From NCBI GenBank assembly GCA_016858145.1, contig JAEHOE010000003.1, positions 992,001-1,056,000 of the forward strand: 64,000 bases of DNA. The letters are read 5' to 3'. Source of the DNA: Edaphochlamys debaryana. Taxonomy: Eukaryota > Chlorophyta > Chlorophyceae > Chlamydomonadales. Both the position numbers and the translations under genes were made by a program. Below the pieces are notes generated by a model. That model was not told the origin of the DNA. It did not search any database and saw nothing but the letters and a program-made list of their open reading frames with translations. Positions 11,784 through 40,533 of this stretch are shown one piece after another. Within the stretch, counting starts at the first letter, position 1. The number at the start of each line of letters is the position of its first letter.

Positions 11784-13370
11784 ATGGCGGGTGCTGTTAT
11801 AGTGCCTGCGCATTACGCGAACGTGATCGCAACCGATCCAAATGGTTCCTGCAGTTTGCACGCTGTGCTGGCATGCGCCGAGACTGAGGTCCAGCGCTAT
11901 ACGGCTGTATCCCTCGTTCGCGACATGCTGGCGTGCATGGCAGCTGCGGACGGCTTCTTTAGCGGCTGGTTGCACGGGTCCGGCTTTTTGCCGGAGGTCG
12001 CCCATGCTGTCGGCCGCGGGAGGGACGAGGCGGCGTCTCAGGCCAACCTGCCTTACTTGGAGACGCAGGCTGCGTACTCAAACTGGATCGGCGGGGCGTG
12101 CTCGTGGCTCACGGATGTGGAGATGCGGATGGTGGCGGAGCTGCTGGGCGTGGACATCCTGTCCTGGCAGCGAACCAGCGGGGGCCTCCTGCGCGTGGCC
12201 GCATACCCTTCTGGCCGTTTCTGTTCCTTCACGTTGGTCCTCTACATGGATGGCAGCGGCGGCAATCGTGGCCACTATGAGGGGTTGCTGGATTCGCCGG
12301 CGTCCCCCGGCGGGAACCAGCTGGCGAATGTGGGGGCGGCGTCAATGATGGACTCGCTTGTGTCGCCGTTCCTGCAGCGTCACGCGCCCGTTGTATGGGC
12401 GGCCTACGACGGAGACTGGCGGATGCCTTCACTTCGTGCGGTTATTTCCCGCATGCGGCCGGCCCCCTGGTCTGTCCTCGTCTCTTTGGGTCTCCTCGGA
12501 GTTGGGGCGGGCGTGCAGCCGGGGCCCCCTGGCATGGCCGGGGTGGCGCAAGGCCCGGCCTCGTCCCGCCGGCACAGCAACACGGTACTGGCCGCCGACG
12601 CGGGATTGTACGGTGGAAGTACGGCGGAGGCGGCCATTTGCGTCTCCTCCGACGCGAGCCTCCAGTCTCGGGGCGACCCCGCCTCCGCCCAAAATCGGCC
12701 CGCTCTGCTCCGGGCCGTTCCAAGCCCGCCATCCCCCTTGCAAGCATCTATGATCATATGTATTGAAGGGTTGAGAAGGCTTGGGAAGTGCGGGGACGCG
12801 GTGGGGCGAGAGCTGCGCGCTCTGGGAGACCCGGGGGGGGTGATGAGGTCCAGGGCCCAACCGCGGCAGGGTTGCCGTGCCCCGGGGAAGCCGACGGCCA
12901 GTGGACGGAGCCGTCCCGCCGCGGCCGGCGGCGTGCCCTCCCAACCGCCGCGAGCAGTCTTCCAGTCGTTGCGTTGCGGAACTGCTTCGATGCTCTGCAC
13001 GCCGAGGTGGGGGATCCCGCCGTGGACGACTGGGACGGGTGTCCGCCGTCCTTCGACGTGGCTTCCGATGCTGGCGGCGATGACAGCGAAGCGCGTTCCT
13101 GTCCCGAGGCATCGGACGAGATGTCCGATAGGCCTGCGGCCGTGGCCGGTGGTCCAGCTGCGCGCGGTGGCCGTGGCGGCGGCCGGGGTTCGCATCGTGG
13201 TCGCGGGCGTCCCCTGAAGCGCGGCGGGCGCGGTCGCGGGCGTCCCCCGAAGCGCGGCGGAAGAGCCCGCGGGCGTCCCCCGAAGCATGTCCCTCCACGC
13301 GACCCTACGCCTGACCTGTTGGCCACGGACGATGACCCGGACGGCACAGACCCGGGGGCGTGGGTGTCGG
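11784..13370 (+). CDS. Helitron A polyprotein, N-terminal part: OTU-like protease and AT-hooks
   Basis: The ATG at 11,784 is chosen because element B also starts with Met-Ala-Gly-Ala. The sequence then has NGSCSLHAVLA with the presumed nucleophile Cys, and NRGHYEGLL with the presumed catalytic His. This matches OTU cysteine proteases, which cleave ubiquitin or act as processing proteases. The frame runs to a G|GT donor at 12,612. Codons resume at 12,870 in another frame, and the join restores alignment with element B (Ala-Asp-Ala-Gly before, Trp-x-Glu-Pro after), so 12,613-12,869 is read as an intron. The C-terminal part has three AT-hook-like motifs (GRGRPPKRGG type, 13,190-13,290) and ends at donor 13,370. 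AT-hooks bind the minor groove of AT-rich DNA. OTU function in Helitrons is not settled; self-processing of the polyprotein is an inference. Confidence 0.75.
12613..12869 (+). repeat. Intron-like insertion carrying a dispersed repeat (copy 1)
   Basis: This segment is absent from the homologous position of element B. It starts with GT and ends with AG, and its removal joins two frames whose peptides align with element B on both sides. Roughly 12,640-12,840 is a near copy, in inverted orientation, of 28,160-28,400. Shared words include GCAAGCATCTAT and AAGGCTTGGGAAGTGCGGGG. Confidence 0.7.
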
Positions 13371-13459
13371 GTGAGTGTCGTGCGATGTCCGCACGTGTGT
13401 CTTTCCTGCTGTCAGTCGTGTTCCACATGAGTGTGTGCTGGTGTGGTTCCTGTCCGCAG

Positions 13460-14635
13460 GCGTGTGGCCCCACCAGATCGGCCAGTCCGCTGAATCCGGC
13501 TCGTACCCTTGCCCCCGGATTCTGGCGCACCTTGACCTGCCGCGTGGCGTGAAGGTTCGGCGCCGCTTCCTGGTAGCGTGGCGTTGTAACGGCGTCGACT
13601 TTGTCGCGTGGCAGCCTGCCCGCGCGATTGCTGAGTGCGTCCGTACCGCCTATGTCTCTGCTCTTGAAACTTCAGCGGTGGCGCATGCAGACCATGGTGG
13701 GCCCGGTGGGTGGGGGCGGGCTGGGATGGGCGTGGTATCTCTGTGTACTGGGTGTTGGTAACTCTGCTCTGTCGGTTTCGGTGTGGAGCACGCGGCCTTG
13801 CCTGCTTCGGTTTTTCACCTTGTGCGTGTTCACCAATATGTGCGCAGCGGTCCTGGGTGGCGCCGACTTGGGGCTGAACTGGCCGGTTGGCCTGGATGAC
13901 GCGCCGCTCGCGGACGGAGGCCTGGGCGGCCCTAGCTGTGTCATATGGCCTGCAAGCGTTGTGGATGTGACTGCCCAGCCGGATGTCGTGAACGCCTTCC
14001 GCCGGCAGCAGGAGTCGTCCTCGGGTGGGTGCTTTGCCCTTTTTGGCGTACGCCTGCGGCACCTTCTTATGAGCAGAGGCTTGCCCTTTCGCGCAGCTGT
14101 GGACCGTTGTTGCAAGCGGCTCTGGGGCGCACGCCGGCACGTGCCAGTGCTATTGGTCATCCAGGTGGTATGCCCCGGTTGGGACGCTCCGCGCGCGTCG
14201 CTTGCGTTGTTCCAATGGCTGGCGTTGCACCGTCCTGCCGAGGTCATGGAACAGGCGGGATCACACCTTCTGGGTGGCGCGTCGGAGCTGACCGCGCTAT
14301 TGCGGTACTTGAGGGCCGTCTGGACGGATGCGGAGGCCGACACGTTTCAGCCCGGTTTACATGTTTCGACCTGCACGGCGTTGGCGTGTGCGGACGGTGC
14401 GTTGGCGTGTTGGGGCACCCAGACGAGCTGTGACGTGGTGGCCTACAGCCGGGCGCGTCCGTGCACGGGTTGTCGTGCTGTTGTGTTTGCTTGGCCTCAC
14501 ATCGTTCCTTGTTACCATTCAGGTGAGGCGGTCCTGTCGGTCGACGTCTCCGGCGCGAGTGCTTTTCAGGACGCCGAGGGGCGTTGGATTGCTGAGACGG
14601 TCCGGTCGCCTTTGCCTGAGGTACGGTCGGGGTAG
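13460..14635 (+). CDS. Helitron A polyprotein, chromodomain and following linker exons
   Basis: Exon 13,460-13,696 joins in frame to the AT-hook exon (phase 1). It contains a chromodomain-like pattern: ILAHLD, a basic stretch RRRFLVAW, then FVAWQPARAI. This corresponds to the Y-x-V-x-x-I, YLVKW and W-x-P positions of chromodomains, which read methylated histone tails or contact RNA. Two more exons follow with matching phase, 13,848-14,024 and from 14,097 onward. They run through an unrecognised region, open in the same frame to TGA at 14,635, with Cys/His residues near 14,455-14,515. Exon ends after about 14,160 are uncertain. Element B has shorter linker exons here, so this part evolves fast. 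Unlike element B there is no PHD finger between the AT-hooks and the chromodomain. Confidence 0.6.
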
Positions 14636-14907
14636 GGGACGGTGTTGTCGTCGTTGGTCGCGTTATCCCGCTGTCGGTGCGGGCGATCTGCGTCTACGTT
14701 TGCCCTCAGGTCCTACGTGCGCTGGCCGTGCATGATGCCGTGTTGCAGGTTGGTGTGGCTGGGTTTGTTGCGCGCGGCATGGGTGCCCACACGCCTGCGT
14801 CTTGACTCTGATGGCCCTCCCCGCTCCCCGATGCGTCTGTTTGGTTTACGGCTTGCTCCCCTTGCCGTCCGTCTGAGCCCGCCCTTTCCACCCGTTTTCG
14901 TTGATGC

Positions 14908-15438
14908 AGGCTGCCTGTTCGGCCTGTGTACACGAGGGTTCGGATGCTCCAGCCGATGACGACGAAGGAGTTGCCGCCCTGGACGCGGTGCGTGGCTGCC
15001 CGACTGTGATGGGCCTGCATGCGTTGTTTGGCCGCGTCCTGTCCCTTACCCGATACATCAATTGCTGGCGCGTGATGCAGGCGGCTCGCCCTGGGCGTGT
15101 TCGTTACGAGCCTGACACCGATGAGGAGGCCGAGGGTACCCGCGCTGGCAAGAAGGCCGCCCGTGACCGCCGAGCCAAGAGGGCCGAGCGTGAAAAGGTG
15201 CGCCATTGGGGTTGAACGTGCCGCGCCCAGCGTGCTATAACCGAACAGTTTGTGTGCATCTGCCATCAGGCTAGAGGCCCCCGCGTCCGTTGTCAATCGA
15301 CCGGGAAGAGTGACGACGACGGCGCTGCTCGTGGAGGAGCGGCTCAACGCGAGCGGGAAGTCCTGGCCGCGAAGCGCCAGGCGAAGGTGCAGCAGAAGGC
15401 TGCCCGAGCGGCTTGCAAGGCCGTTGAGGGCGAGGTGA
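14908..15438 (+). CDS. Helitron A polyprotein, acidic and basic coiled-coil exons
   Basis: Three short exons can be read. An acidic one starts after the TGCAG at about 14,907. One encodes an Asp/Glu-rich then Lys/Arg-rich helix (KKAARDRRAKRAEREK type), ending at donor GTGCGC near 15,198. One starts after CATCAG near 15,269, encodes AKRQAKVQQKAARAACKAVE and ends at the GTGAGA donor near 15,435. Element B has an equivalent Arg/Lys/Glu-rich helix at about 32,965-33,110, so the module is conserved. It is probably a coiled coil or nucleic-acid-binding spacer; no catalytic role is suggested. Confidence 0.5.
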
Positions 15439-15519
15439 GATGCCGATGTATGGGCGTTGAGCACATGTCATGGCTTGTACACTACCGGTTGGTGACCCGT
15501 GCGTTTGGTCCTGCCAGGA

Positions 15520-16752
15520 GTCTGCGGACGATGGCGACCAGTCCGGTGTTGACGATGACACGGTGAAGCCTTCTCTCTCATCGGACGCTTTTCTGAAGGC
15601 TTGTGCTTGGAGCCACCAAGCGCCGGGCTCCACCACGACCCCGCTGGACCAGGCGACGGCCGTGGCCCATCTCCGTGCTGCGGGGTTTCCGGCGCGACAG
15701 CAGGACCTCCCGCTCGATGCCCATGTCCCCGGCTTGCCGCAGGAGGAGCAGGTGTTGTTAGCCGCCCGCTTGGAGCGTTACGTAGAGGCGCATATGCCGT
15801 CGCTGGTATGCGCCGTCTGCAGCGAGATGAAGTCGTCGAAGGAGGCGGATTACGTCTTGTGGGAGGACCAGGCCGAGCGCTTTGAGTACCTGCGCGCGGA
15901 CATTATACGCGATGCACTCGTGCCGCGTCCTGGCCACGTGGTGTTTTGGTACCCCCCTGTCCGCCCAGCTCCTCCCGCTCCGGTCCGTCCCGCTGGCTAC
16001 CACCGGCACTGGTTGCCTGCCGAGTTTCGTGCTCGTCGCATGGCCCCCGAGATTTCTGGGGGTCTGGCGGAGTTGTCGAGCCCAGTCCGTTGGAATGTTC
16101 CTGCGAGCGGCACGGGTGTCTATGACGGCGCTGGCGGCGCCGGGCCCGCTGTCTGTTCGCATCCTTTGCGTGACATCGACGCTGATGAATTCTTGAACAC
16201 TGGTACGGCGGTAGTCGCCAGTTCTGAGGCTGCCGGGTTAGGTGGCTGAGGTTCATGTTCAGGCCTCGGAGTTGTGTGTCCCATTGTGGGACCATCGCTT
16301 CTGCCTCGGCCGTCCTAACCAATCCGCCGTCCTCTGCTCTGACAGGTGGCCCCTCTCCGTGGGCAGCACCGGTGGAGGCCAACACCCGCGGTGAACCGTT
16401 GCCCGGTGAGGAGCTTGGGGTAGCGGCTCTCAGGCTCTTCGATCCGTGCAGTGGTTGTCATGGCGTTTGTGGCGGCCGGGGTCGGGTTCTTGCTGACAAG
16501 TCGTGTGTGCCTATGCAGGTGATGGCGAGCAGAGCGACCCTGAGGAGTACCCCCCACGGGATGACCGAGCGCCCAAGTGGAACATCGCCGGCCCAGTCCC
16601 TTACATGGAGGCCGCGTTCTGTATGCGGGTGGAGCAGTCCGGTCCGAACAAGACCGCTCTTGTTGATGACCGCAATCGACTCAACGTGTGTGTGTGCACC
16701 GATTGCTACAAGGCGTTGGGCTGTACGTCGAAGGCCGACCGTCTTCCAGGTA
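15520..16752 (+). CDS. Helitron A polyprotein, Cys-motif domain (DUF6570-like, N-terminal part)
   Basis: The exon from about 15,520 to 16,201 encodes the conserved block FPARQQDLP and the motif VCAVCSEM (about 15,810), ending RDIDADEFLNTG before a GT donor. The next exon (about 16,519-16,750) encodes a second Cys pair (VCVCTDCYKAL). Element B has the same two exons with the same motifs. A CxxC-type motif just upstream of the Helitron-like N domain is typical of the DUF6570 region of Helitron polyproteins. The split Cys pairs could form a zinc-binding site, which is inference. The function in transposition is unknown. Confidence 0.6.
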
Positions 16753-16818
16753 CGAAAATCGGGTGGCAGTCGGGAAGAGCCACGCCTTTGTGTTCCATCA
16801 TGACGTCCTGCTCGCAGG

Positions 16819-19800
16819 GCCTTTGGACCGGGCGTCAGTTCGAATTCCTGCGGCTGCGTTGGCGCGCATGGACGGTGGTGACGTCCCTGCCTCTTTGCCG
16901 ACCTTGACGTTCATGGAGCAGCAGATCTTCGGCCGTGGACGGGTATTGCAGTACCTGCTGCCTGTTAAACGGGAGGACCGTGACAACCCGGAAGCAAAGG
17001 ATCGCTCCCTCAAGTACCCACCGGGGACGGAGCCGTTGGCGGTGACCACCCACGGTATAGCCGTTGCAAACCCCCCCATGCAACAGCTGGTGGAGGCATT
17101 GCCGCGCAGCCCTGCGTCTCTCCCACAGAACATCCAGGTGCTAAACATTTCTGCTATCCGGTCGTACGACGAGTTGGTCAAGCAGCTGAAGGCCGCGAAG
17201 CCATTGGAAGTGTGTTCGGCCACCGTCGTGGCTTGGACGAACTTCCTGATGGAGTGCGACAAGACGGCCGCGTGGGATGCCTCGGCCTTGCGCGCGTGGC
17301 GTGATACCCATGGACGTGAGGCAGGAGTTCCGCAGTCCCTTGTCGACAGCGCCTTGGCGACCACTGACGACCGCATCAGTGACATGCTCCGCGCCGTCAT
17401 GATGCGTGACCGTAGCGGCGCCACCCCTGTCCGCGAGGCGGCTGTGCCGGAGGCGTTGGAGGAGCCTGTCAGCTTGTACTCACTTCATGACACGCACGTC
17501 CCGCCTTCCATGCGTCGGCCGCCGTTCGGGCAACGGGAGACAGGGATCGAGGAGCTGGAGGTCATCCTTGTGCAACGAGCGATGGAGGAGTCGCCGTCTG
17601 GCAACAGCGTTCAGGCGGATCCTGTCCTGCTATGCAAGGAGATGACCCATCAGTCCCGACTGGTGGTCGCGGCGGGGGGGCCATCCGCCAAGGTGGGCAG
17701 CGCTGGCGTGGAGGCGTTCGTTGGCGTCACAATGCGTGATCTGCCCGGCGATAGGATGGTGGCCTTGAGGGTGCATTCAGCGTCTTGCCAGGCCTCCCTC
17801 CTTGCATGCGCGGAGCTTTGCATGCACCCTTCCCGTTGTGTCACCTGAGCCCTGATTGTTTCCTGCGTTGGATGTCCTTCGCCGCCATCCAGGTGCTTGA
17901 TTTCCGGGACCGCTGTGACTTTGGACGTTGTTTCCCGGCCAGCTTCCCGTACGGGATCAGTCGGCCGCTGGGGATGTCTCTTGTGGAGTTTTTCCGCCAC
18001 CTGATACGACGGGTTCCCCGCCGCCAGCACAACGGCAATCCCTTGCTGGTGGCTCGCATGATGGATGTCGCCCGTCTCGAAGGCGCCCGCGTTCACAGTG
18101 CCATCACTGCGAAGTCTAATGCGGCGGACGTGGAGACCGTAGGGAACCTTCCTCGTGACGTCGTCCGCTCCATGGCCGACGTTCTTGCGTTACCGTACCA
18201 TGCGCCTGAGCGCCGGGAGCTTCTGCGGCGAGAGTCGCCCCTGGTTCAGAGCCTTCTGAGGACCATGACAAGGACGTCCCAGCGCATGGACATGACGGAC
18301 GCTTACTACCACGGTGTGCAGCGTTCAATGGCCGCTGTGAATGCGGTGGTGGGGATGCCGTCGGTCATATTCAACATCAACCCCGCTGATCTCCACAGCG
18401 CCGCCGTCATGACGGCGGCAGGCGAGGTGATTGAAGTTGGGGATGATGGTGGCCCTCAGTCAACGGAACCGTTCTGGAAGAAGTGGCTGTGTGTGCGCGA
18501 CAACCCCCACTCGTGCATGCGCCTCCTCGTGGCTATTCGAGACGCCCTGATGGACATCCTCTTTGGCTTCGCGCCCGGATTCAAGGTCCAGAACCCAGAG
18601 TGCTTCTGCGGCGTGGTGTTCCATGTCTTCGTCAAGGTTGAGCAGAGCGGGCGCCTCGCTCTACACTTGCACGGCGCTGCACATGTGGCCGCCTTGGCAC
18701 CGGAATGCCTACGCGCCATGTTCGAAGGCCCGAATTGTCAGGCGTTGTCGTTGGCTCATTCCATGTGCTCAATGTGGTTGCCGGATCCGTACTACGACAT
18801 CCAAGCCTCCGACCCCATGGTCTATGAGGACCCCGCCGATGCCATGCTGCACTACGCGAGAGCGCCGTCCCTGGACGCCGAGCCCGTTGAATCAGGGGCT
18901 GCGTTCCTGGCGTCGGTCTTGGCGCCTGATGGCACCACTGACGCCATGCACGGGCCGGTGCCTGATGCCTCGTGCCTCAGTCAGCCGCCTGCGTCAACCA
19001 TCGAGTCAGCCGCGGCGGCCCCTGTGACGTCTCCACCGTGTGGCCCGGGCACGACGGCCTTGCCCTCCGCGGTTCCTTCGCGTTGGCTGCAGCCGCCCGC
19101 TGCGGACTACCGTCGTCCGCCTTCCGCGTTTACGTTGTTCCACACCATTCGGGTGGCCCTTCGCTCCCAGCCGTTCCCAGCTATGGTGGGCCATGGTTTG
19201 CGGGTGGCGCAACGCATAATCAAGAAGGCCTGCACCGCAAGGTTGGCCAGCATTATCTACTCCGTGTGTCGACACAGCCGGCACATGCGTGGTCTCTGCG
19301 ATCGTCACGGTTGCAAGATGAAGGATGGTGACTGCAGCCAGGTATATCCTCGCGTCGTGCGACGTCAGTTCCGGTGGATCGGCCGCCGGGGTGCCTTCGC
19401 TCTGCCACGATATGGTCCCAATTTCGTGTCCCAGTTCGCTCCGGCGTCGCTGGCCTTTGGAGCCAACAACCACTTCAACTTGCCCGCTGAAGTGGACCGT
19501 GACATGACCCCCGAGGTGGAGGCGGAGCTGCTGAAGCCTGAGGCGGATCGCGACCCCGACATCATGGCTCCTCTTGCCCAGCCCCCCGAGTTCCGTGCCA
19601 TGCAGCGGGCGTACTACGCCTGCAAGTACATTGGCAAGGGCGTGAGGTCGAGCCAGGCTGAGCAATTGACCAAGGCGGCAAATGTGTCGCGGAACTTCCT
19701 TTGCTCGCCAGCTGGTGCTAAGGCTGCTGCGACCCGGCCGTCGAGTGGTTTGGGTCCCGTCGCCCCTGCTGCGCTTGGCAACTTGATGGCTGCCGTGAAC

Positions 19801-20649
19801 CGGATCACCGCCAGCTGTACAATTGGGTTGACGATGGCCTCCTACCTCCTTGAAGGCCACTCTACGTTTCACTGCACATTCGATAACGCCGGACTAGCGC
19901 CTGGCGCCTACTCCGCCCATTTCCGTGCAACCGCTGGCCTGCGCCCGGCCGGGGACGGCATGGTTGACACCATGTTGGCTGTGGAGGAAGGTTCCGACGG
20001 TTCGCTCCCGCCCGTCCGTGCCGTCACCGAAGTCACGCACTACGTTCACCGTGGGGCGGAGTTGCATGCGTCAACCATGAGCCCTTACATGGTGGCCATG
20101 TTGTACAAGCTTGTGAAGATCCCCACCGGCTTCACCGCGGCAACGTTGCCGGGTTTTCGTACCCGCGCAAAGCATATGTCCGACCGAGGTCAGTCGTGTG
20201 CCTCCGGCCAGATGCCCGCCGACGTCCCTTATTTCACTTGGGTGCCGTTGGTGGCAACCCATCCCTTGTATCGGACGCACGCTTTCTGCAAGCGGCCACG
20301 CCCGGCGTACGTGAAGTTCTTCGGGACGGTCCCCGAGCGGCCCACCCCTGGCGAGGAAGCTGGCGCGGCTGCCGAGGCGTACTACACTTTCGTCCTTAGC
20401 GTGTTCCGGTCTTACACATCCGCTCCCGTCCCTCCGCGTGGCCCAGACGACAGTCTCTACGATCTGTACCGGCGTTGGCTTGCCGAGGAGTTGCCTATGC
20501 GCGGCGAAGCTCACGCGTCGTGCGTCAAGTCCCTTTTGGACGGCCTTCAGGTGGAACACGACTTGCGAGCCACCGCCCGCGCGGAGCGTGATCAACTGCG
20601 TCGCAAGCGTCGCGCCGCCGGAGCGTCGCAGCCCATGGAAGCGATTCCG
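16819..20649 (+). CDS. Helitron A polyprotein, Rep (HUH endonuclease) region
   Basis: Exons about 16,819-17,692 and from 17,893; the 200-bp intron has a shorter counterpart at the same place in element B. The first exon has the DUF6570-like stretch ALARMDGGDVP, then FMEQQIFGRG. The second has the Helitron-like N-terminal pattern FNINPADLHS, the HUH motif LHLHGAAH (His codons 18,664-18,666 and 18,670-18,672) and the Rep tyrosine motif YYACKYIGK (Tyr at 19,615-19,617 and 19,627-19,629, spacing Y-x3-Y). HUH endonucleases nick the transposon ends through 5' phosphotyrosine links. The frame stays open to 20,802, but homology to element B leaves it at about 20,635-20,650 and continues in the helicase frame, so a one-base deletion relative to the ancestral fusion is inferred. 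Confidence 0.85.
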
Positions 20650-23459: not shown

Positions 23460-24310
23460 TTCCACCGCCGGTCCAATGGACGAGTGTGGGCATGGCTGTC
23501 TTAGACAACGGGCATGTGCCGACCCGCCGGCTTTGCCCGCTGAGGCACCTGCCAGTTTTGCCCGCGGGCCGCCTGGGTCCTCGTGCGAGTGGGTGCCAGT
23601 GGGTGCAAGGCCTCCTCCCCCTCATCCTGTCACCAGCTCACTGGGCCCAGGTGACCGCGCTCCCGAGTACGTCAGGCTGGGGCAGGGGTGGACGACCACC
23701 TTCGGGTACCTGTTTCCGCCACGAGTCAGCCTTAACTTGCGTGCACGTTGGCCGTAGCCTATCGCTGTCATTAGTGAAGCGCGAGTGTCGGCCAGCATAC
23801 TCGGCCGTCCACGAACGTCAGCGTGACTGTCACGGTGTTGGCGCCTCGCCCTGACCTCGCCCCTTCACTGCAAGGTGCACCCCCTGCCGTAAGCGCATAC
23901 GGTACGCCGCGAGCACTGGTATTAGAACATGCGGCTACCGAGCCACAATAAGCTGGCGGGACCACCCTGGTCGCGAGCCCGCGTCAGTCGCATCCGTCGT
24001 TCCCCAGTCACGACATAGTAGGTGCGACCTTGGGCTATGCATACAACGCTCCAAAAGAAGGTCGCGGAGGTGCCGTCGGTGGGGCGCGAAACGTGTCTCG
24101 ACCCCAGTTGTTGTCTTTGATCTCGTCCCGGCGCGACCCCACGCATTCACCCATAATGCGGGTATGCACCAGGCGCGTCGCGGGCCCTCCCGCGTATCTC
24201 AACCCAGGTTTATGGTCGCGGGCGACTACTTGCGCGATAGTCGCATCAGGCTTCCCCCAGACACTACGTAGTAGGGGCGACCGTGGGCTACGCACTCGTC
24301 GTTCAAGAGA
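23449..24310 (+). repeat. Long direct repeat, copy 1 (helicase 3' end and downstream)
   Basis: About 860 bases nearly identical to 25,018-25,879 at a constant offset of 1569 bases. Only a few substitutions were seen (for example CCGCCGGTCC versus CCGCCAGTCC). Copy 1 begins within the last helicase codons and runs into the 252-bp tandem repeat array. Confidence 0.9.
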
Positions 24311-24780: not shown

Positions 24781-25017
24781 CCATGTGCTTCCGCGCGGGT
24801 CCAGGGGGGAGGCCCCAGCCGGGGCTAGTCCATGGGGGTGGCCCCAGGAGGGATCAGTCCAGGGGGGGCGCTTAGTGTGGTGGTGTGTTCAGGAGGGCTT
24901 AGTTGAGGAGTTCTCTTAGCGTGCGCTGTTGTTGGGTCGAGGAACCCTGGAGCAGCAGTCTCTACAGTGTCCTTTCCTTTGAGGTTCAGGCACCGGCACC
25001 TCCCGTCCCCAGGGCCG
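24781..25017. other. Spacer between the two long direct repeats
   Basis: G-rich sequence with the partly repeated phrase CCAGGGGGG. It ends CCTCCCGTCCCCAG immediately before repeat copy 2, so the junction resembles a 3' splice site. No gene is supported. Confidence 0.4.
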
Positions 25018-28159: not shown

Positions 28160-28400
28160 TTATGCGGTCCGCGGCCCCGGCCCCCGGCCTTCCCCCGGGT
28201 CTCCCAGAGCGCGCAGCTCTCGCCCCACCGCGTCCCCGCACTTCCCAAGCCTTCTCAACCCTTCAATACATATAATAGATGCTTGCAAGGGGGTTGGCGG
28301 GCTTGGAACGGCCCGGAGCAGAGCGGGCCGATTTTGCGCGGAAGCGGGGCCGCACCCGAAGTCGGCGTGGTCGCAGCCCCGCGACGTGAGCGCTGTGTCG
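28160..28400 (-). repeat. Dispersed repeat, inverted copy of the insertion in Helitron A
   Basis: Read on the minus strand this matches about 12,640-12,840 (core 28,195-28,352 against about 12,673-12,835) with few changes and a roughly 20-base insertion. It lies between the degenerate repeat field and the DNA upstream of Helitron B. It is not part of any recognised gene here. Confidence 0.8.
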
Positions 28401-31519: not shown

Positions 31520-31591
31520 GTGCGGAATTGGGCGCCCCATTTGCACCCTGTTGACAATTCTCACACTTATCGATTGTCCACTCCTTTGTAG

Positions 31592-32568
31592 AGCGGTCTG
31601 TACCTGCAATGAAGAAAACATCTGCGCCCGCCAAGACGCGGAAACCAGCGACGTGGAAACCTCCGGCCTCATTGCCCTGCCAAGTTTGTTCCAGTCCAGA
31701 GGAAGCTGGCCTGATGTTACTTTGCGATCGTTGTAGCACTGGATGGCACACGTACTGCCTTTCGCCGCCGCTGTCGGAAATCCCCTCAGGAGAGTGGCTG
31801 TGCCCTAACTGTGCATCGTTAGGCGTGTCCCTGGAGCTGTTACCACGCACAGAAGGTGCTGGTCGAACGTTCCCCACTCGTAATCTCAGACTAAAGAAAG
31901 CTATCGTGGGTGAGTGCGAGGCCGTACTTGAATTGTTCGTTCTTGTCCGTACATTTATTTAACAGTTCGCCGTGTGCTTCAGGGTTGATGGATCAGATAT
32001 GCAAATTGGTGGGCGATACATTTGTCGTGCAAGCTTCAGCTGTCATACAGCAACTGTTGCCAAAGCATACGGCCGACGAATGCCAGACGTTGGCCGCAAC
32101 GTGGGCGGAGGCGTGCCCAGATGGCTCTACAGCTCTTTTGGTCACAACTCCTCGACGACTCTCGGCGCTTCTATTGTGGTGTCGTGAACGTTGTTCGGCC
32201 CCTCAGACTGGAGCGTTTGCGATCGGATTACCTGCGAAGTTCTCGCGCGCATTGGGCAGAAGCCAAGGTGTGTGAACGGTGTGAGTATGTTGCCTGTAAC
32301 GGGGTGCAAAGGTTGACGCTACCGCAATTTGCTTCAGGTGAAGGCGACAACGACAAGTCAGCACCACCGGCCCCAATAGCGGTATTTACTGAGGGCGCGT
32401 TCTGGGCAGTGGACAAGATCATAGCTCACCGAGCTGAGCGTTTGAAGGGCCGTCGTCGAATGTTCTATTTGGTGGCATGGTCGGGTTTCAGCGAGCCGTC
32501 ATGGCAGCCTGCTGCTAATATTACATCCGACTTAAAGGAGGCTTATTGGTCGACTGGAGGTGTAGAAG
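31592..32568 (+). CDS. Helitron B polyprotein, PHD finger and chromodomain
   Basis: Exons 31,592-31,909, 31,983-32,267 and 32,338-32,568. All joins keep the frame, beginning with the 72-bp intron 31,520-31,591 that links the AT-hook exon. The first exon holds a textbook PHD finger (C4HC3): CQVC near 31,679, CDRC near 31,726, GWHTYC near 31,742 and CPNC near 31,802. The middle exon is a helical region of unknown role. The third exon is a chromodomain: WAVDKIIAHR, MFYLVAWSGF, then SWQPAANI. PHD fingers and chromodomains bind modified histone H3 tails, so the polyprotein could be directed to or away from particular chromatin. That role is inferred, not shown. Confidence 0.82.
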
Positions 32569-32687: not shown

Positions 32688-33115
32688 AATCGATGGCGAG
32701 TCCGGCGCGAGCTAACAACGGGGTGTTTGTGGCGGCTTCGGCCGTTGAGACGGCACCAGTTGACATTGGCGTGGTAAGTGACTTGCGTTAGACGTTGCTA
32801 CGTACTGTGTAACTGTCACGAACCCCCGTGTAGGCGCTAGAGCTTTGCGTGTCTGTTGGAGGAACGTTCAAAGCCCTACTGGTAAGGTGGCGATGTTTGT
32901 CGGATCAGGTTGCTATCCATCCTATATTGGCGTCAACGTGCCACCCGCCTGCCTTGTAGGATCAGCCTGTCGCCAAACGACGACGAGATGCTGTCGCTTC
33001 ATCAGCACGCAAGGAGCGAGCGGAAGCCTGTGAGAAGCGAGCTGCTGTGGAGGCCCGTGTTCGCAAATATTCGAGGGCGTACCGGCAGCGTGAGAAGATG
33101 ATTCAGGAGGTCAGT
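32688..33115 (+). CDS. Helitron B polyprotein, linker and basic helix exons (approximate)
   Basis: Short exons are suggested by GT/AG signals: about 32,688-32,775 up to a GTAAGT donor, about 32,834-32,881 up to GTAAGG, and about 32,960-33,110. The last encodes a Lys/Arg/Glu-rich helix (AKRRRDAVASSARKERAEA) that corresponds to the basic coiled coil of element A. The first two have no recognisable domain and their exact limits are uncertain. Confidence 0.45.
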
Positions 33116-33180
33116 GAACTGTCGACGCACGACTATTTCTGGGCCGTTTGAAGATGTCTCACCACATGTTTCAAATTTAG

Positions 33181-34340
33181 GTCGAGTGCACTGGATCAGA
33201 AGCTGACGACGAGGGCACCGCTCCGAGTAAAGAGCCGGACTTTTCCCACTTCGCCGTCCTTGGTGCCTGCATGTGGAAACATCGCGATGCATCCAGCAGG
33301 GTCGACGCCCTGGCAGGAGCGTCGTCCATGAAGTCGTTCCCTCCAGATTTCCCTTCACGTCAGCAGGACCTACCTGCGGGAGCTCATGTCCCGGCCGCGT
33401 CGCTGGCGGATCAAATCGCTCTAGCCGAACGAATGGAACTGTTTGTCGAGGGCGTCATGCCAAGCAGAGTATGCGCAGTGTGCAGCGAGATGGTGTCTAC
33501 CAAAGAGAGCAAGCTGCTTTCATGGCAATCTATGGCAGCGGAGCTTGAATATCTACGTGCCAATGTCCAGCCTGACGCACTTGTGCGTCAGCCGGCTCAT
33601 GTGGTGCACTGGCGACCTCCCTTACATCCCGACCCGCCCTCACGTGTTCGGCCGATGGGATACCAACGTCACTGGCTGCCTCCCCAACAGCGGAAGGGGC
33701 GCTCACAGCGGCCTCAAGGTGAACCTCCGGCAGACCAAGTCCTGCCCGACAATACAACCATTCCATGTGTCGGGGGAGGAGCCTATGGACCCGCCTCCAC
33801 GAGCGCTATTGATGGAGAGATAGGATGCGACCGGCCGGTCGCTTATCGGGATATCGATGCCGACGTCTTCATGGGCCATGGTGAGTCAGTTTGTCGGGCA
33901 GTTTAACTTGTGACCATTCACGACGTCGTTCTGGCTGTACAGGTGATATCCCGTCGGTTGCTGCGTAAGACGTGCCCGGCCTAGGTGGGCAACAACAAAC
34001 GACTTGTACGGGTGGAGGTAGGTTGTGAGCAGTTAGACGCGGACGTGCTATTACGATCAGTCCACAAGGCATAGCTCTTTGTGACGTTTGCATGCCGCAG
34101 GCGATGCGGACAGCGACCCAGAGACCTACCCAGTACGGGTCGATCGCAGGCCTACGGTTGATGTGATCGACGGCGTCTCGACGACGGTCGCTGCCTACTG
34201 CATGCGTGTGGAAACGTCGGGTGCCAACGCAACGGCGGTTCTTGCTGACGATGGGTCCTTGGAGGTGGTTGTTTGCGACGTATGCGCTGCCGCTCTGCAG
34301 CACGTCCCAAAACTGGGGTCCCAGAGTCGGAAACCAGACG
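33181..34340 (+). CDS. Helitron B polyprotein, Cys-motif domain (DUF6570-like, N-terminal part)
   Basis: Exons 33,181-33,880 and 34,101-34,340 join in phase 1 across a CATG|GTGAGT donor and a GCCGCAG acceptor. Conserved with element A: FPSRQQDLPAGAHVP, VCAVCSEM (about 33,470), YRDIDADVF at the exon end, and in the second exon DSDPETYP and VCDVC. The paired Cys motifs in two exons may form a zinc site. Conservation in order and spacing between two diverged elements shows that this is a real functional module. Its biochemical role is unknown. Confidence 0.62.
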
Positions 34341-34408
34341 GTGAGTGGTGGACGTAACGCGCTGATGCCCAACCTGCTGTTAATTGGAATCCCCTTTTGT
34401 GTCTTCAG

Positions 34409-37400
34409 GAACTCCAATCCCCACTGTCCGGATCCCACAAGGCTCATTGGCGCGCATGGATGGTGGAGACGTTCCAGACGACCTCCCAAAACTGAGTTTT
34501 ATGGAGCAGCAGCTGTTCGGGCGTGGAAAGGTGCAGCAGTTTCTTCTGCCTGCAGATCGCGATGATGATCGTGGGTATCCGACGGACGCGGCCCCTTTGA
34601 AGATCACGAGTCACGGAATTGCAGTCGCCAACCCTCCGTTTCACCAATTGGTGGAGTCGATTCCGCGACACCCCGAGGCCTTGGCTTCCAACATTTCGCT
34701 GCTGTGTATCCCCGCTGTACGGTCGGCGGCTGAAGTGTTCAAGTACCTGAATGGGGCGAAAGCGTACTCCGTCAAACCACGAGCCGTGTTGGCATGGACG
34801 ACGTTCCTCCAGAAATGTGACAACGAGGTGATGTGGGACGAGGACGCAATTTCATTTTGGAAGAACCGCCATCTGAGCGGGACAGTACCTCGAGCGTTGC
34901 TGCAAGATGCAATCGCAACGTTGGACGTCGCTATCAGTGACCTACTTAGGAATGTATTACTACGCGATCGATCTGGCCCAACGCCTGTCCGTGATGGTGC
35001 TGACGTGGTCGCTGAGGAACCGTTACCATTCTTTTCCCTGAGTGACGGGCACGTGCCTCCTCAATTTCGGACCAACTCCGACAACGACGACCGAGGGTTG
35101 ACCGAGTTGGAGATCATACTTGCGGAACAGTCTCCCAAACCCTCTCCCTCGGACCACAACATTGTCCGCAATGCTGCCACGGTACAACAGGAGCTCAACA
35201 ACTCTCGGACGTTAGTATGGGCCTCTGGAGGTCCTGGGGCGAAGGTGAGCTGTTTAGGGAACTTGCTTCTTCCTTCCGGGCTATCTAACAGCTGGTGGCA
35301 TTTGCAGGTTCTGGACTTTCGGGACGACGGTCACCTTGGTCACTGTTTCCCCACGTCGTTCCCTTATGGCATCCATCGCCCAGCGGGAATGTCTCTGGCA
35401 CAATTCTTTCGTCATTTGATTCGGCGGGTTCCTCGTCGTCAGCATAACGGCAATCCGCTCCTCGTAGCCAGGATGATTGATATTCTTCGTCTCGAAGGGT
35501 CGCGTCTACATTCATCTATTACTGCCAAATCAAGCGTCGCCGACGTCGAAGCTGTGGGGCATATTCCGCGCGACGTCGTGCGATCTATGGCTGAAGTCTT
35601 GGCATTACCCTACCATGACACACGACGCCGTGAACTGCTGAACGCCAACTCGCCTTTAGTGCGAAGTTTGGTCCGAACTATGACGCGGACATCACAACGC
35701 CTGGACATGACGGATGCCTACTACCAGGGCGCTCAGGGGTCTATGGCAGCCGTCAACGCAGTGGTTGGATTACCATCAGTCATATTCAACGTCAATCCCG
35801 CCGACCTTCACAGCGCCGCTGTCATGACTGCGGCTGGCGAGGTTGTGGAGACTGGGATTGACGGTGGTCCCACTTCGTCTGAAAAGATCGTGAAGAAATG
35901 GCGTCGCGTGCGCGAGAACCCCCACTCGTGCATGAGACTACTATTGGCAGTTCGAGACGCAATGTTGAAAGAATTATTTGGATTTGAGCGTGGATCAAAG
36001 AAGCAGAATGATCCAGACAGCTGCTTCTGTGGTGTGGTATTCCACGTCTTCGTGAAAGTGGAACAAAGTGGACGAATGGCCCTACATCTCCATGGTGCAG
36101 CGCACGTCGCAGCCCTATCTCCAGAACGTCTACGGGCGTTGTTCGAGGGTCCCAACTGCCGTGCGTTATCTTTGGCCCATTCGTTGTGTTGCATGTGGCT
36201 ACCAGATCCCTATTACGACCTTCAGGCCGGCCCAGAGATGCGTTACGTGGACCCTGCGGATGGTCTCGACCTGCACCTTCTGGGCGAAGAAGGTGGTCCG
36301 GTAGAGCCCTTGCGTCCTCCACCTGTGGACAAAGAGCGCCCTCCGGCCTCATTCAAGTTCCGCAAGGTTGCAACATCGCCGCCCCGTGTTTCGGTACTGG
36401 CCGGGAAGCGGGTAATCCACAAGAGGTGTGCTGCACATCTAGCAGCCGTGGTGTATTCATCGTGTCGTCACGGCAAGCACGTCAAGGGGCTATGTGATCG
36501 GCATGGCTGCACAATGGTCGATGGAGACTGCAGCATGGTATATCCTTGAGTGTTACGACGTTCTATGCGGTGGTTCGGGCGGCACGGAGCCTTCGCGTTA
36601 CCTCGGTATGGTCCGAACCTGGTTTCTCAGAACCCAGCCACCTCCATGGCCTTCGGGGCTAATAATCATTTCAACCTCCCTGTCGAGGTGGACCGCGACT
36701 TGACGGCAGAGGTGGACGCCAAGTTGATGAAGCCTGAAGGGGAACAGGACCCGGATATTGTGTTTCCAGTCTTGCAGTGCCCAGAATTTCGAGCGATGCA
36801 GCGGTCGTACTATGCATGCAGGTATATTGGGAAATCGGTGCGATCGAGTCAAGCAGTTCAGCTTACCAAGGCGGTGGGCATCACTAACGCCTTCCTGACG
36901 TCGCCAGCTGGACGCAAGGCGGAACAAGCCAGCTGTTCTGGGTTGGGTGTCGTGTCTCGTCGGGCAGTGGGCAACCTCATGGCTGCTGTCAACCGGATTA
37001 CAGCAAGCTGCACGGTTGGTCTTACGATGGCGTCTTTGCTTCTCGACGGCAATGCGACGTTTTATTCCACGTTCGACAATTGCGGGATCGCCAGTGAAGC
37101 ATACTCGGCTTCCTTCAGAGCTGCTGCTAACATCTCGGACGCGAGTGAGGGGCTGGCAGACACCCTCTTGGTTATTGGGGATAACGCAGATGACAGCCCG
37201 ACGCCTGTGCAAGTTGTTACTGAGGTGACACACTACACGCACAGAGGTCGTGAACTTCACGCGCTCTCGATGAGCCCCTATGTCGTCGCGATGCTGTACA
37301 AGGTCGTCAGGATCCCCAAGGGGAAAACAGCCACTTCTCTTCCCGACGAGAAAGTACGGCGTGCACATTTGTCTAACCGGGTTGAAGGAGAGATCCCTGC

Positions 37401-37810
37401 CGACGTCCCCTACTTCACCTGGGTTCCATTTGCACCGACGCACCCACTCTACTCCACGCACGCCCTGCGTAAGCGACCAAGACCCGTGTACGTTAAGTTC
37501 TATGGCAACGTCCCTCCTCGACCTCCTCCTGGGGAAGACACCGGCTCAGCTGCAGACGAGTATTACTCCTTCGTGCTGAGCATGTTTCGGGCGTACACTT
37601 TCGACGTGGCGCCACCAAGGAGGAGAGGCGAGTCATGGGGGGACGTGTTCCGACGTTGGCGGAACAAGGAACTGCCCCTCATTTCGAAAGTGAAGTCCAT
37701 CGATACCTCCGCTGCTCCAAATACGCCTCCGGTGCCGGACCTCGACTACCGCGCCTGCATTGAAAGTCTACTGGATGGGCTGCAACGCGAGCACGATCTG
37801 CGCCTTGCTG
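34409..37810 (+). CDS. Helitron B polyprotein, Rep (HUH endonuclease) region, interrupted
   Basis: Exons 34,409-35,244 and from 35,308; the 63-bp intron sits at the same codon boundary as the 200-bp intron of element A. Key motifs: ARMDGGDVPDDLP, FNVNPADLHS, HUH motif LHLHGAAH (His codons 36,085-36,087 and 36,091-36,093) and the tyrosine motif YYACRYIGK (Tyr at 36,811-36,813 and 36,823-36,825). The frame is broken by TGA at 36,547-36,549 where element A has a CGC Arg codon; homology resumes immediately after. Translation would end after the HUH motif and before both catalytic tyrosines, leaving a Rep unable to form the phosphotyrosine link. Near 37,812 one extra G in GGGG shifts the frame before the helicase. 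Confidence 0.85.
36547..36549 (+). other. Premature TGA stop in Helitron B Rep
   Basis: The frame reads Val-Tyr-Pro-stop-Val-Leu-Arg-Arg, while element A reads Val-Tyr-Pro-Arg-Val-Val-Arg-Arg in an open frame. An ancestral CGA Arg codon changed by one C-to-T transition is the simplest explanation. Confidence 0.85.
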
Positions 37811-40533
37811 GGGCGAGAGGAACGTAATCGTCTTCGTCGGAAACAACGTCGCATGGGTCGGTGGTCGGATTCTTCAGACAACGACGACGGTCCGTCTTAT
37901 GTCGAGGGCGACGAGGTCGATCCAGGGATTGGAGAGGACGAGGCCGCTGCTTACATAGGAGAACGTCCTGGAGTGGATGATCAATCGTCAGTCAGAGTCA
38001 GCCAGGCCGATCTGAGCCAGCGTGACCTCGACATCCGTTATGACCTGAATTTTGCTTCGGGCCATTACGCGATCGAGGCTGCCATGGCTGCACCGCAACC
38101 ACTGCTGGATCCGACGCGCGAGATTCAGCCCTCCAAGAACACGATCTCCGGCACGGGAGTGGTAACCACGGCGATCGCTAAAGCAGCGCTCCGACTTAAA
38201 AAGTTCGATCGCCTCGCTGCAGACGAGGGCTGGCTCGGGGCAGAGGATCCTGCATTCGCGGGATGCAAGCTTTGCCTTCGGCGCAATGGGACGGCTTTGT
38301 GCGTCGTGGTTACCCGTCCCGACGGCTCGGCAGACACGGTCTTGCCCCCTGGGCATCGCCCTCCGTTAGTGTTGCTTGACAGACCACCGACCGTGGACGA
38401 GACCGTCCAAACGTTCATGCTGGCGGTGGATCAAGCCGTACCATTCATCTTATTTGTGGAGTATTTCAACAAGATGCGTGCAAAGACGTTGACGGATCGC
38501 GATCGACCACCACAGGTGATGGTGGTGGGCGCCGCTGGGTACGGCAAATCTCAATTCATTCATGCCCTTATTTGGTATTGCTTCCAGCACGGGGATTCAG
38601 ATTGGGTGGCTACTTCCGCGTTCGCGTGGACGGCAGCGTTGAACTTCTCTTCGAAGCAACATCGCTCGTTCTCTACGCATCATATGTTTGGCTTGCGACC
38701 ACCAAACGGGACCTTCCAGAAGAAGGGCAGATACGCCCAGCGGGTAAGGCGTACAAAATCACGCTTCGTTGCATTTCCGCTTGCCGATCAAGCTTCCCCT
38801 TACAAGCATTCCCTTGCCCATGGCAGGTTAAACGCAACGTAGACGAGCATGCGATCTTCATCGACGAGATCGGGTACAACAGCTTACAACACATGGGCTC
38901 TTGCAACATCGCGTGCGACCTGGTCTTGGACCCATACGATCGCGTCGCTCCCACCGATCGAGGTATGGCGGCATTTAAAGGTCGTCCTTTCGCATTGGTC
39001 GGAGATGTGTACCAGCACGTACAGCCGATGGGCAGTCCAGTGTTTGCGTTTTCGGACCGAGTACATCGGGATTCGAATTTCACGCCACGCACAATGTTGC
39101 CTCCCGACGTCAACATTCCGGGCGCCGCTGTGGCTGTGGAAGAAGCGACGGGCAGCGACACCGAAGAGGCCCAGCCTTTGGCAAAGCGTGCCCGAGCCGT
39201 CGCGGCTGCAGTCGCGATGGTACACACCGGGAAGCCCACGACGGGTGCAGCTGTACAAGGAGCTGGGAACGCGACAAAGCCGACGGCGCCAAAGCGAACG
39301 ATGAAAGCAGACCGAAAGGTATGCACCACTACGGTCAGAGGCTTCGAGGTTTATCGGGCCGTGGAGGACACCTTCTTGCTTAGCCAGCCACAGCGACAAG
39401 ACAAGACCGACGCTGGGCGCCGGTTGGCTCGTTACGCCGGCCTGTTTAATGGGACAACGTGGGCGGACAAGTACAACACCGACAACAACGTCAGCAAGGA
39501 CTACGGCAAAGAGCGCAAACAGTTGGTGACCAAGCTGGTGGACGAACTCAACGAGCGTGCTCTAACGAGCCCGGAGGAATTACAGGGCCTGTCGGCCCAT
39601 AACCCGCGGGTTGTCCTACAACGCAACGAACCACGCCATTTCATTAATACTGCCCTCATGAAGGCAGCAGCGATACATGCCAAGAAGCGACTTATTGTAT
39701 GGAATGCAACGCATCAACGTGTGAAGGAACGACGCGGACGGGGGATAGCGACACCTCTGAATCGTGTGCAGGAGAGCAACTTCCTCGACCAAGCCGACAA
39801 ACACTTCAACAACCTCACCAGCGATACTTGGTACTTTGAAGGAGGGCTGTTCTTACTGACCGATAGTGCGCAAGCTGATGCCGGAGTTGCACGCAACAAC
39901 CTCGTCCGCGCCGTGGGGATCGTCCTGGATCCTGCAGAACAGCCGGACACTGGTGAGGGGGAAGCGTGGAGGTTGAAGTTCATGCCAAGAGCGGTGTTAG
40001 TAGAGCCCGTAGTAGCACAGGCGGACACGAACATCATGAAGGGACTGGACGTTCCCGGGGACTTTGGCCCAACTGTGTTCCCGGTGACTCCCATCATGTC
40101 CAGAAACTCACGTAGAATCAAGAGCGTCGCGAACAACGGAGAACCCGTCATGGTTTCAGCATATCGGAAGAACCTTCCCTTGACAGATGCACTGGCCGTG
40201 ACAGATTATTTTGTGCAAGGAGCGTCGTTTGGAAATGAATGTTGGATTGCTGATTTGCGTCCACCCCAGGGGGGTATTGATCGGGCATGTTTGTATGTAC
40301 TGCTCACACGATACGCTTCAATGGACCACATCCGTCTGTTGGCGCCACTGTGGCTGAGGGGGGATACGGACGGAAGAAATCGAGTGATAGCAGCATTCGT
40401 CGCTGCTGCCAAAATTCCCGAGAATTTGCGTTGCGAGCGTCTGTTGTTGGAGCGGTCTGCAGCAGCGACGAGGAGGAAGAGGGCGGCCCTTTTCCGCCGT
40501 GCAAAGGCGTTGGTTGATGCTAGAAATGGGTAA
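37811..40533 (+). CDS. Helitron B polyprotein, PIF1-like helicase
   Basis: Exons about 37,811-38,743 and 38,827-40,533. The 83-bp intron (CGG|GTAAGG to GGCAG|GTT) is required to change frame and lies at the same codon as the in-frame 231-bp intron of element A. Motifs: Walker A GAAGYGKSQ (about 38,530), FIDEIGYN (about 38,858), VGDVYQ (about 39,000) and YVLLTRYASMDHIRLL (about 40,295). The N-terminal linker EGDEVDPG aligns with element A and marks where the homologous frame begins. The second exon is open to TAA at 40,533, so the helicase half itself looks intact; it is separated from Rep by a frameshift. Function as in element A: unwinding during rolling-circle transposition. Confidence 0.85.

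What the first reader, a model, noticed from the sequence alone, without database searches (positions are those of the whole stretch)
11784..40533. Helitrons whose transposase is a fused OTU-protease / chromatin-reader / RepHel polyprotein
Sequence shows: in two diverged elements the exons join in one open order from an OTU-like domain (NGSC or DGSC...GHY) through AT-hooks and a chromodomain to HUH Rep and PIF1-like helicase. Known: Helitrons encode RepHel, and some families carry OTU or other accessory domains; chromodomains occur in integrases of some retrotransposons and steer insertion. Inference: a rolling-circle transposon using AT-hook plus chromodomain (plus PHD) for target choice, and an N-terminal cysteine protease for self-processing or deubiquitination, would be a rarely described combination.
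Basis: partly seen in the sequence, partly recalled or inferred. Interest (0 to 1): 0.88.

Follow-up and report, generated by a model that had tools for sequence, protein, structure and literature searches.

The report
Jumping gene with built-in chromatin readers
A green-alga-like genome carries about 20 copies of a rolling-circle transposon whose replication gene is predicted to make one protein of about 3,500 residues that starts with a protease-like part and predicted chromatin-binding parts, which would likely guide where it inserts and protect it, a combination we did not find in print.

Summary
The architecture is real, but both copies in the window are broken. Element 1 (family A) and element 2 (family B) are two families of Helitron-type transposon. 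A natural sister copy of element 1 (C15a) reads OTU-like domain and AT-hooks in one 560-codon frame and continues through eight hand-set, phase-matched GT-AG introns, without a stop, to chromodomain, DUF6570-like part, HUH Rep and helicase (3,491 codons). Element 2 reads the same order through 11 introns, with an added PHD finger, up to a nonsense codon in Rep. Where its first intron splits OTU from AT-hooks, family A is contiguous and homologous. OTU and Rep lie in the same order at 20 of 23 OTU loci. All nine exons change most at third codon positions. A third family (11 Rep loci) has no OTU match nearby. Weak points: the OTU segments of A and B have no Pfam match (one relative, E 0.13), family A's chromodomain rests on homology and fold neighbours, my gene finder did not reproduce element 2's hand-set exons, there is no transcript, and targeting and deubiquitination are inferred. 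Verdict: new variant of a known kind.

The parts
9988..10033 (+). 5' terminus of family A; from 9989 on identical in 4 of the 5 family A copies aligned, one base different in C15a; family B copy C15b starts with the same 44 bases
11784..13370 (+). Element 1 exon 1: OTU-like domain (DPNGSC ... GHY) and three AT-hook repeats; broken here by an insertion
   Evidence: one uninterrupted 560-codon frame in sister copy C15a
12676..12830 (.). ~155-bp insertion inside exon 1, inverted copy at 28192-28359; absent from C15a and C26, present in C38 and C309
13187..13290 (+). Three AT-hook repeats (GRGRPxK type; motif recalled)
13460..13705 (+). Element 1 exon 2: chromodomain
   Evidence: no Pfam match; 35% identical to element 2's chromodomain, E 5e-7 in a single comparison; top fold neighbours are chromodomains
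13848..16202 (+). Element 1 exons 3-6 (13848-14620, 14910-15197, 15270-15434, 15518-16202): linker, basic region, Cys-rich segment
   Evidence: mapped to the window by eye; codon-position bias
16519..17692 (+). Element 1 exons 7-8 (16519-16749, 16818-17692): Cys-rich segment and DUF6570-like part (by homology to element 2)
17893..23459 (+). Element 1 exon 9: HUH Rep and helicase, frame broken near 20.64 kb
   Evidence: Helitron_like_N 5e-7; HLH, YxxxYxxK, Walker A/B motifs in C15a; single 1,971- and 1,904-codon frames in C15a and C38
29696..30329 (+). Element 2 exon 1: OTU-like domain (KDGSC ... GHY)
30330..30424 (+). Element 2 intron 1 (95 bases, phase 1); its removal restores homology to family A's contiguous exon 1
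30425..31519 (+). Element 2 exon 2: acidic repeats, Gly/Arg-rich stretch and one AT-hook (ARGRGRPPGK)
31592..31909 (+). Element 2 exon 3: PHD finger
   Evidence: PF00628 6.4e-14; CHD4, KMT2D, PHF12, KDM5-type PHD fingers among the best in PDB
31983..32267 (+). Element 2 exon 4: no family match
32338..32568 (+). Element 2 exon 5: chromodomain
   Evidence: PF00385 2.7e-6, over cut-off; cpSRP43 and Swi6/HP1 in PDB
32688..34340 (+). Element 2 exons 6-10 (32688-32773, 32834-32881, 32960-33109, 33181-33880, 34101-34340): basic region and Cys-rich segment
34409..35244 (+). Element 2 exon 11: DUF6570
   Evidence: PF20209 1.6e-10
35308..36549 (+). Element 2 exon 12: HUH Rep up to an in-frame TGA
   Evidence: PF14214 2.4e-6, 28.3 against 28.9 bits
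36550..40533 (+). Element 2 remainder of Rep (YxxxYxxK) and helicase, with a frame break between 37694 and 37827 and, by eye, a further intron ending near 38829
40569..40573 (+). TGTAA, candidate poly(A) signal 35 bases after the RepHel stop (signal type recalled); family A has none there

Best explanation
These are two families of a large Helitron-type transposon whose RepHel gene is predicted to make one protein of about 3,500 residues that begins with an OTU-like, predicted cysteine-protease domain and predicted AT-hook and chromodomain readers (plus a PHD finger in one family), and which would likely use the readers to hold the transposase on chosen chromatin and the OTU domain to keep it from being destroyed. 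Shown: the order of the domains, their linkage at many loci, the open frames, coding constraint on the exons, and OTU plus AT-hook in one unspliced frame in a natural copy. Predicted: that the exons are spliced as modelled into one messenger. Inferred mechanism: AT-hooks grip AT-rich DNA, the PHD finger and chromodomain grip histone H3 tails with particular methylation, and this tethers the HUH nuclease and helicase at compatible chromatin when the single-stranded intermediate is pasted in; the OTU domain trims ubiquitin from the transposase or from chromatin at the site. Self-cleavage of the long protein is a less favoured use of the OTU domain.
For: OTU and Rep in the same order at 20 of 23 OTU loci; the 3 Rep loci without OTU (C104, C93, C229) lie so near a contig end that the OTU would fall off. 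The domain order was found in 9 of 11 other copies fetched. One 560-codon frame holds OTU and AT-hooks in C15a, one 1,971-codon frame holds RepHel. The whole gene reads open through 8 introns in C15a and 11 in element 2 up to its TGA; the modelled frames hold 0 stops, the shifted ones 72 and 101 (A), 49 and 55 (B). Homology of A and B runs through B's first splice junction. Third-position excess in all nine exons between C15a and C26; exons 1-7 together P about 1e-9; seven of nine single exons P < 0.05. dN/dS (NG86) 0.18 (OTU, A/C26), 0.19 (OTU, A/C23), 0.29 (chromodomain, A/C26). PHD and Chromo over Pfam cut-offs in B. Helitron-encoded tegument-like deubiquitinases are active in vitro, and OTU domains in Helitrons are reported (PMC9741609, passages). 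A further Helitron family in this genome has an OTU-like part in the same 1,189-codon frame as Rep.
Against: No transcript or protein. The OTU segments of A and B have no Pfam match; of four aligned members only the one from C23, a locus with no Rep, hits Pfam OTU, at E 0.13, and the structure model is unusable. Family A's chromodomain has no Pfam match. No PHD in the parts of A scanned. C23 and C100 have an OTU alone. The intron models are hand-set; the gene-finding script agreed for C15a only at the highest of three intron penalties, and for family B copies it skipped the PHD exon and read the AT-hook stretch in another frame. C26, the copy used for the selection test, has frame-breaking indels in some exons. 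TGTAA words lie in introns 4 and 6 of B, and A has its only TGTAA in the chromodomain exon and none after RepHel. Clustering of copies is equally explained by joint copying. Five relatives of the Rep part from other records (four Volvox, one unnamed ENA) show no OTU, PHD or chromodomain, though they look truncated.
Confidence: 0.52

Rival explanations
1. Two neighbouring genes in one transposon: an upstream OTU/AT-hook/chromodomain gene and a separate RepHel gene starting near the basic region, as family C's gene seems to do.
For: Family C (copy C110) starts with a basic region followed by the Cys-rich part and Rep, with no OTU seen upstream in the 10 kb read. TGTAA words lie in introns 4 and 6 of element 2 and in the chromodomain exon of A. 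Helentrons are described with OTU in additional ORFs (PMC4067079, passages).
Against: No stop codon in the modelled frame between OTU and helicase in C15a, every hand-set junction keeps phase, and all exons in between show third-position excess. A further family in the same genome has an OTU-like part and Rep in one unspliced frame.
Confidence: 0.17
2. The OTU domain is a self-processing protease that cuts the long product into protease, reader and RepHel parts.
For: A predicted product of about 3,500 residues with several domains; cleavage of Rep/helicase subunits has been suggested for Helentron OTU (PMC4067079, passages).
Against: No cleavage site was looked for systematically. OTU enzymes are chiefly deubiquitinases (recalled).
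Confidence: 0.15
3. The reader domains serve to escape or exploit silencing (binding the element's own marked chromatin, regulating its expression) and do not choose target sites.
For: PHD and chromodomain could bind marks on silenced copies (inference); some fungal Helitrons carry a TET/JBP dioxygenase thought to counter silencing (PMC12730594, passages).
Against: The readers sit in the transposase itself, like integrase-linked chromodomains of Gypsy elements, thought to orient insertion (PMC9033089, passage).
Confidence: 0.25
4. The N-terminal exons are captured host exons carried as passengers, without function.
For: Helitrons capture gene pieces (PMC6431247, passages). The 5' part and RepHel differ in divergence between C15a and C26, a mosaic.
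Against: Same order in two families whose OTU segments share 42-44% identity; dN/dS 0.18-0.29; third-position excess in every exon.
Confidence: 0.05

Closest known systems
Helitron2 (Chlamydomonas reinhardtii; PMC3627910, passages read)
   Same: Green-algal rolling-circle element with RepHel; T at the 5' end if the element starts at TGACC
   Different: PMC4067079 describes Helitron2 as a single RepHel ORF; no OTU, AT-hook, PHD or chromodomain in the passages read. 5' hairpin and asymmetric terminal repeats were not found here; the flanks seen here do not end in TTTT
Helentron and other Helitrons with OTU (PMC4067079, PMC9741609, PMC6431247, PMC5148889; passages read)
   Same: Rolling-circle element with an OTU cysteine protease, as an additional ORF or as a domain of the long RepHel product; deubiquitination or protein cleavage proposed
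   Different: Helentrons have a C-terminal AP endonuclease, not seen here; no chromatin readers described in the passages read
Proto-Helentron of Phytophthora with a SET-domain ORF (PMC4067079, passages read)
   Same: Rolling-circle element carrying a chromatin-related domain
   Different: A separate ORF with a histone-methyltransferase-type domain, not a reader fused to the transposase
Ginger1 transposons with OTU or Ulp1, one family with Ulp1 and PHD (PMC2836005, passages read)
   Same: Transposase fused to the same kinds of accessory domain
   Different: DDE cut-and-paste transposase, domains at the C-terminus, no chromodomain in the passages read
Chromoviruses (Gypsy integrase with chromodomain; recalled, and PMC9033089, passage)
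   Same: Chromodomain attached to the enzyme that inserts the element
   Different: LTR retrotransposon integrase; no HUH Rep, OTU or PHD (recalled)

Membership tests
Helitron (any) | Rep domain matching Helitron_like_N with HUH and two-tyrosine motifs | tested here: met
   PF14214 over cut-off in element 1 (5e-7), 28.3 against 28.9 bits in element 2; HLH and YxxxYxxK in A and B
Helitron (any) | SF1 (PIF1-like) helicase fused after Rep | tested here: inconclusive
   Walker A, Walker B, GDxxQ-like and LTR motifs in order in A; no PIF1 profile hit, AAA_19 0.18 only; no clear PDB relative
Helitron1 (canonical) | 5' TC end | tested here: not met
   Terminus reads (A/G)TGACCG in the 5 family A copies and in C15b
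Helitron1 (canonical) | 3' CTRR end with hairpin, insertion between A and T | tested here: inconclusive
   The 3' end was not defined
Helitron2 | 5' hairpin and asymmetric terminal inverted repeats | tested here: inconclusive
   5' 62 and 102 bases fold no better than shuffles, z -0.84 and -1.02; no inverted copy (11 bases or more) of the 5' 100 bases in the 3' regions read; 3' end unknown
Helitron2 | RepHel groups with Helitron2 in a tree | not tested
   No Helitron2 reference sequence was at hand
Helentron | C-terminal AP-type endonuclease | tested here: not met
   No such Pfam match in either helicase segment up to the stop
OTU cysteine protease | Pfam OTU match over its cut-off | tested here: not met
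   A and B: no match. Of 4 aligned members only C23's matches, E 0.13, 13.2 against 23.3 bits; OTU is the only family listed. Helitron on C139: 6.8e-4, 20.6 against 23.3 bits. Hence 'OTU-like'
OTU cysteine protease | Cys in a D/N-G-S/N-C motif near the N-terminus and His near the C-terminus (motif recalled) | tested here: met
   GSC is invariant in the 4 members aligned; GHY in the 2 that reach that point
OTU cysteine protease | OTU fold | tested here: inconclusive
   Model pLDDT 43; no usable fold match
Chromodomain | Pfam Chromo match over cut-off | tested here: met
   Element 2: 27.6 against 25.1 bits. Element 1: no match at E 1, but related to element 2's at 5e-7 in a single comparison
Chromodomain | Chromodomain fold in family A | tested here: inconclusive
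PHD finger | Pfam PHD match over cut-off | tested here: met
   Element 2: 52.2 against 24 bits. Element 1: none in the segments scanned; its exons 4, 5, 7 and 8 were not scanned

The most novel reading that the evidence does not exclude
The first rolling-circle transposon whose own Rep-helicase is a chromatin-guided machine: AT-hooks, a PHD finger and a chromodomain read the target, an OTU deubiquitinase guards the complex, and one giant protein does the nicking, unwinding and pasting.
Probability: 0.38. Interest if true: 0.78.

Novelty: new variant of a known kind. Interest (0 to 1): 0.6.

Why it matters
How Helitrons choose insertion sites is little understood (general knowledge, not searched). 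Here the same genome holds Helitron families with and without a chromatin-reader module (A and B against C), so the role of the module in site choice can be tested by mapping insertions. The pairing of a deubiquitinase-like domain with histone readers also recurs, in different enzymes, in Ginger1 transposons (OTU or Ulp1, PHD), which would point to a shared need of unrelated transposons.

Tried and rejected
Protein database search with 1,870 residues of the spliced family A protein: 0 of 7,957 scored candidates at E <= 0.001. OTU alignment: 0 of 7,997 at E <= 1. Rep segment alone: 5 of 7,992, four Volvox and one unnamed ENA record, none with OTU, PHD or chromodomain by Pfam at E <= 0.1; they look like partial models, so the cross-species test is open. 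PDB sequence search with the OTU alignment: nothing at E <= 10; with element 2's OTU alone: 4 chance-level rows. OTU fold model too weak; its Foldseek rows are meaningless. Profile comparison of the A/B OTU alignment with the OTU of the C139 Helitron: no relation found. The gene-finding script agreed with the hand-set exons of C15a only at the highest of three intron penalties (18 and 16 exons at the lower ones) and was trained on the element's own codons; on the five family B copies it did not reproduce element 2's exons: it skipped the PHD exon and misread the AT-hook stretch. A 2A-like motif in family A was noted by eye and dropped, since the key residues differ (recalled). Contig-end enrichment of A/B copies was considered from contig lengths and dropped: C10 simply ends inside its element. 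The 3' end could not be fixed. Among family B copies substitutions are about equal at the three codon positions, so they show decay, not constraint. Rows dropped before counting: split pieces were merged into loci, a stray OTU fragment at C26:590356 was set aside, and 5 further Rep loci (C82, C144, C335, C5, C22:1087712) were not examined.

Literature: searches; the lists (20 of 94; 15 of 1,378) were capped. 'Helitron + OTU + chromodomain' gave one paper, in which OTU means taxonomic unit. 'Helitron + AT-hook' (7 papers) and 'Helitron + PHD finger' (11 papers) were seen as listings only; none is about Helitron proteins by title. Subscription papers, Repbase reports and preprints are not covered.

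Full report
What is there. The window is C3:992001-1056000 of a 141.9-Mb, 502-contig genome. Those figures resemble the published Edaphochlamys debaryana assembly, 142.14 Mb in 527 contigs (PMC8226300, passages), but the species was not established. Element 1 (family A) and element 2 (family B) lie head to tail on the + strand.

Linkage across the genome. Searches with the OTU segments and with Rep found 23 OTU loci and 23 Rep loci of families A and B after merging split rows (one of the Rep loci, C229, is only 63% identical). Of the 50 Rep rows, 11 loci form family C at 54-56% identity and 5 further loci were not examined. At 20 loci (5 A, 15 B) OTU and Rep lie in the same order and orientation, 5.4-6.4 kb apart at 18 and 8.8 kb at two. 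C38 and C309 share flanks and count as one insertion, which leaves 19; other short contigs were not tested for such redundancy. OTU-only loci: C23, C100, C81. Rep-only loci: C104, C93, C229, each so close to a contig end that the OTU would be missing. Of 11 other copies fetched, 9 (C15a, C309a, C38, C26; C15b, C182, C10, C2, C22b) have AT-hook, chromodomain, Cys-rich segment, DUF6570-like part and HUH in order, with PHD in the five B copies; helicase was probed in A only. The other 2, C23 and C100, showed only the OTU.

One gene or two. In C15a, which lacks the ~155-bp insertion seen in element 1, C38 and C309, OTU and AT-hooks share one 560-codon frame. Hand-set GT-AG junctions give nine exons and a 3,491-residue product without a stop; past the helicase, C15a's last stretch differs from element 1's. 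A gene-finding script made the same main choices for C15a at the highest of three intron penalties, apart from exons 7-8 and the 3' end, and added introns at the lower ones. For family B it did not reproduce the hand-set exons, so element 2's model rests on domain content, phase and homology. Element 2 reads through 11 introns up to a TGA in Rep. Modelled frames hold 0 stops; the other two hold 72 and 101 (A) and 49 and 55 (B). The A-B OTU alignment runs on through the point where B has its first intron and A has none, which supports that splice independently.

Selection. Between C15a and C26 all nine exons show more changes at third positions, introns 21.3%; exons 1-7 together 141, 127 and 232 changes at positions 1, 2, 3, P about 1e-9; singly seven of nine have P < 0.05, exons 4 and 5 do not. 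C26 also has frame-breaking indels in several exons, so it is itself decayed. dN/dS is 0.18 and 0.19 for OTU and 0.29 for the chromodomain. Family B copies among themselves look neutral and carry frame breaks.

Domains. Element 2: PHD 6.4e-14, Chromo 2.7e-6, DUF6570 1.6e-10, Helitron_like_N 2.4e-6 just under cut-off. Element 1: Helitron_like_N 5e-7. The chromodomain of A is related to that of B (5e-7 in a single comparison), and its low-confidence model has chromo, chromoshadow or cpSRP43 entries in the 44 best of 50 rows, with Z no higher than 5.2. By comparison with HP1 (cage residues recalled, alignment by eye), B keeps aromatic residues at all three cage positions and A at two. The OTU call is the weakest: GSC is invariant in four aligned members and GHY in the two that reach it, but A and B have no Pfam match, and the one relative that matches, at E 0.13 with OTU as the only family listed, is C23, a locus without Rep. 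Another Helitron family on C139 has a stronger OTU match (6.8e-4, below cut-off) in the same 1,189-codon frame as its Rep, so OTU-Rep fusion is not confined to A and B here.

The contrast family. Family C shares the Cys-rich segment and Rep but, in the one copy read (C110), begins with a basic region and shows no OTU upstream; none of its 11 loci has a match to the A/B OTU nearby. So the OTU and reader module was gained by, or kept only in, the A/B lineage (inference).

Mechanism. Committed reading: the readers tether the transposase to marked chromatin during integration, and the OTU domain removes ubiquitin from the transposase or from chromatin at the site. Helitron-borne deubiquitinases of another class are active in vitro and were proposed to protect transposition proteins from the proteasome (PMC9741609, passages). 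Nothing here measures binding, activity or site choice. A and B loci lie within 50 kb of one another in 4 pairs among 22 loci, 0.16 expected under uniform placement, but in three of the four pairs A stands upstream of B in the same orientation, so joint copying or duplication is as good an explanation. A TGTAA word follows element 2's RepHel stop by 35 bases, but others lie in its introns 4 and 6, and family A has none after RepHel, so the poly(A) evidence is neutral.

Novelty. OTU in Helitrons and Helentrons is known, also as part of the long RepHel product; OTU or Ulp1, once with PHD, fused to transposase is known in Ginger1. I found no paper describing a chromodomain, PHD finger or AT-hook in a Helitron transposase; Repbase and subscription papers were not covered. 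New variant of a known kind. On re-checking the calls I lowered the main confidence from 0.55 to 0.52, the novel case from 0.40 to 0.38 and the interest from 0.62 to 0.60, because the only Pfam OTU match comes from C23, two fetched copies carry the OTU alone, and the gene finder did not reproduce element 2's exons; the two-gene rival rose from 0.15 to 0.17.

Noticed in passing
C139:116401-119967 (L068, L001): Another Helitron family of this genome has an OTU-like segment and Rep in one unspliced 1,189-codon frame.
   Followed up: partly
C23 (L035) and C100 (L036): OTU segments 65-70% identical to family A's without any other part of the element in the stretch fetched; truncated copies or free-standing OTU genes.
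   Followed up: partly
window 12676-12830 and 28192-28359: The same ~155-170-bp sequence inserted in opposite orientations in element 1's first exon and near element 2's 5' part; looks like a small non-autonomous transposon.
   Followed up: partly
window 23443-24310 and 25012-25879: An 868-bp stretch repeated at 99.7% identity in element 1's 3' region, among ~252-bp tandem repeats.
   Followed up: no
C26 copy (L033/L034) against C15a (L027/L028): Mosaic: mostly 10-21% divergence in the 5' exons and about 1-3% in RepHel, with the change around the start of Rep, as if the modules had been exchanged.
   Followed up: partly
C3, C309, C26, C22: Family A stands upstream of family B in the same orientation within 26 kb at three loci, and two B copies lie 42 kb apart on C22; possible composite or jointly copied units.
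   Followed up: partly
window 42743-44059 and 45233-46975: Two long open frames that look leucine-rich and alike by eye, no clear Pfam match; most of the first lies within sequence shared with other B copies, so it may be a captured gene.
   Followed up: no
genome-wide: 40 scored places match the 5' terminus of families A and B, more than the full copies, so many truncated or non-autonomous relatives probably exist.
   Followed up: no
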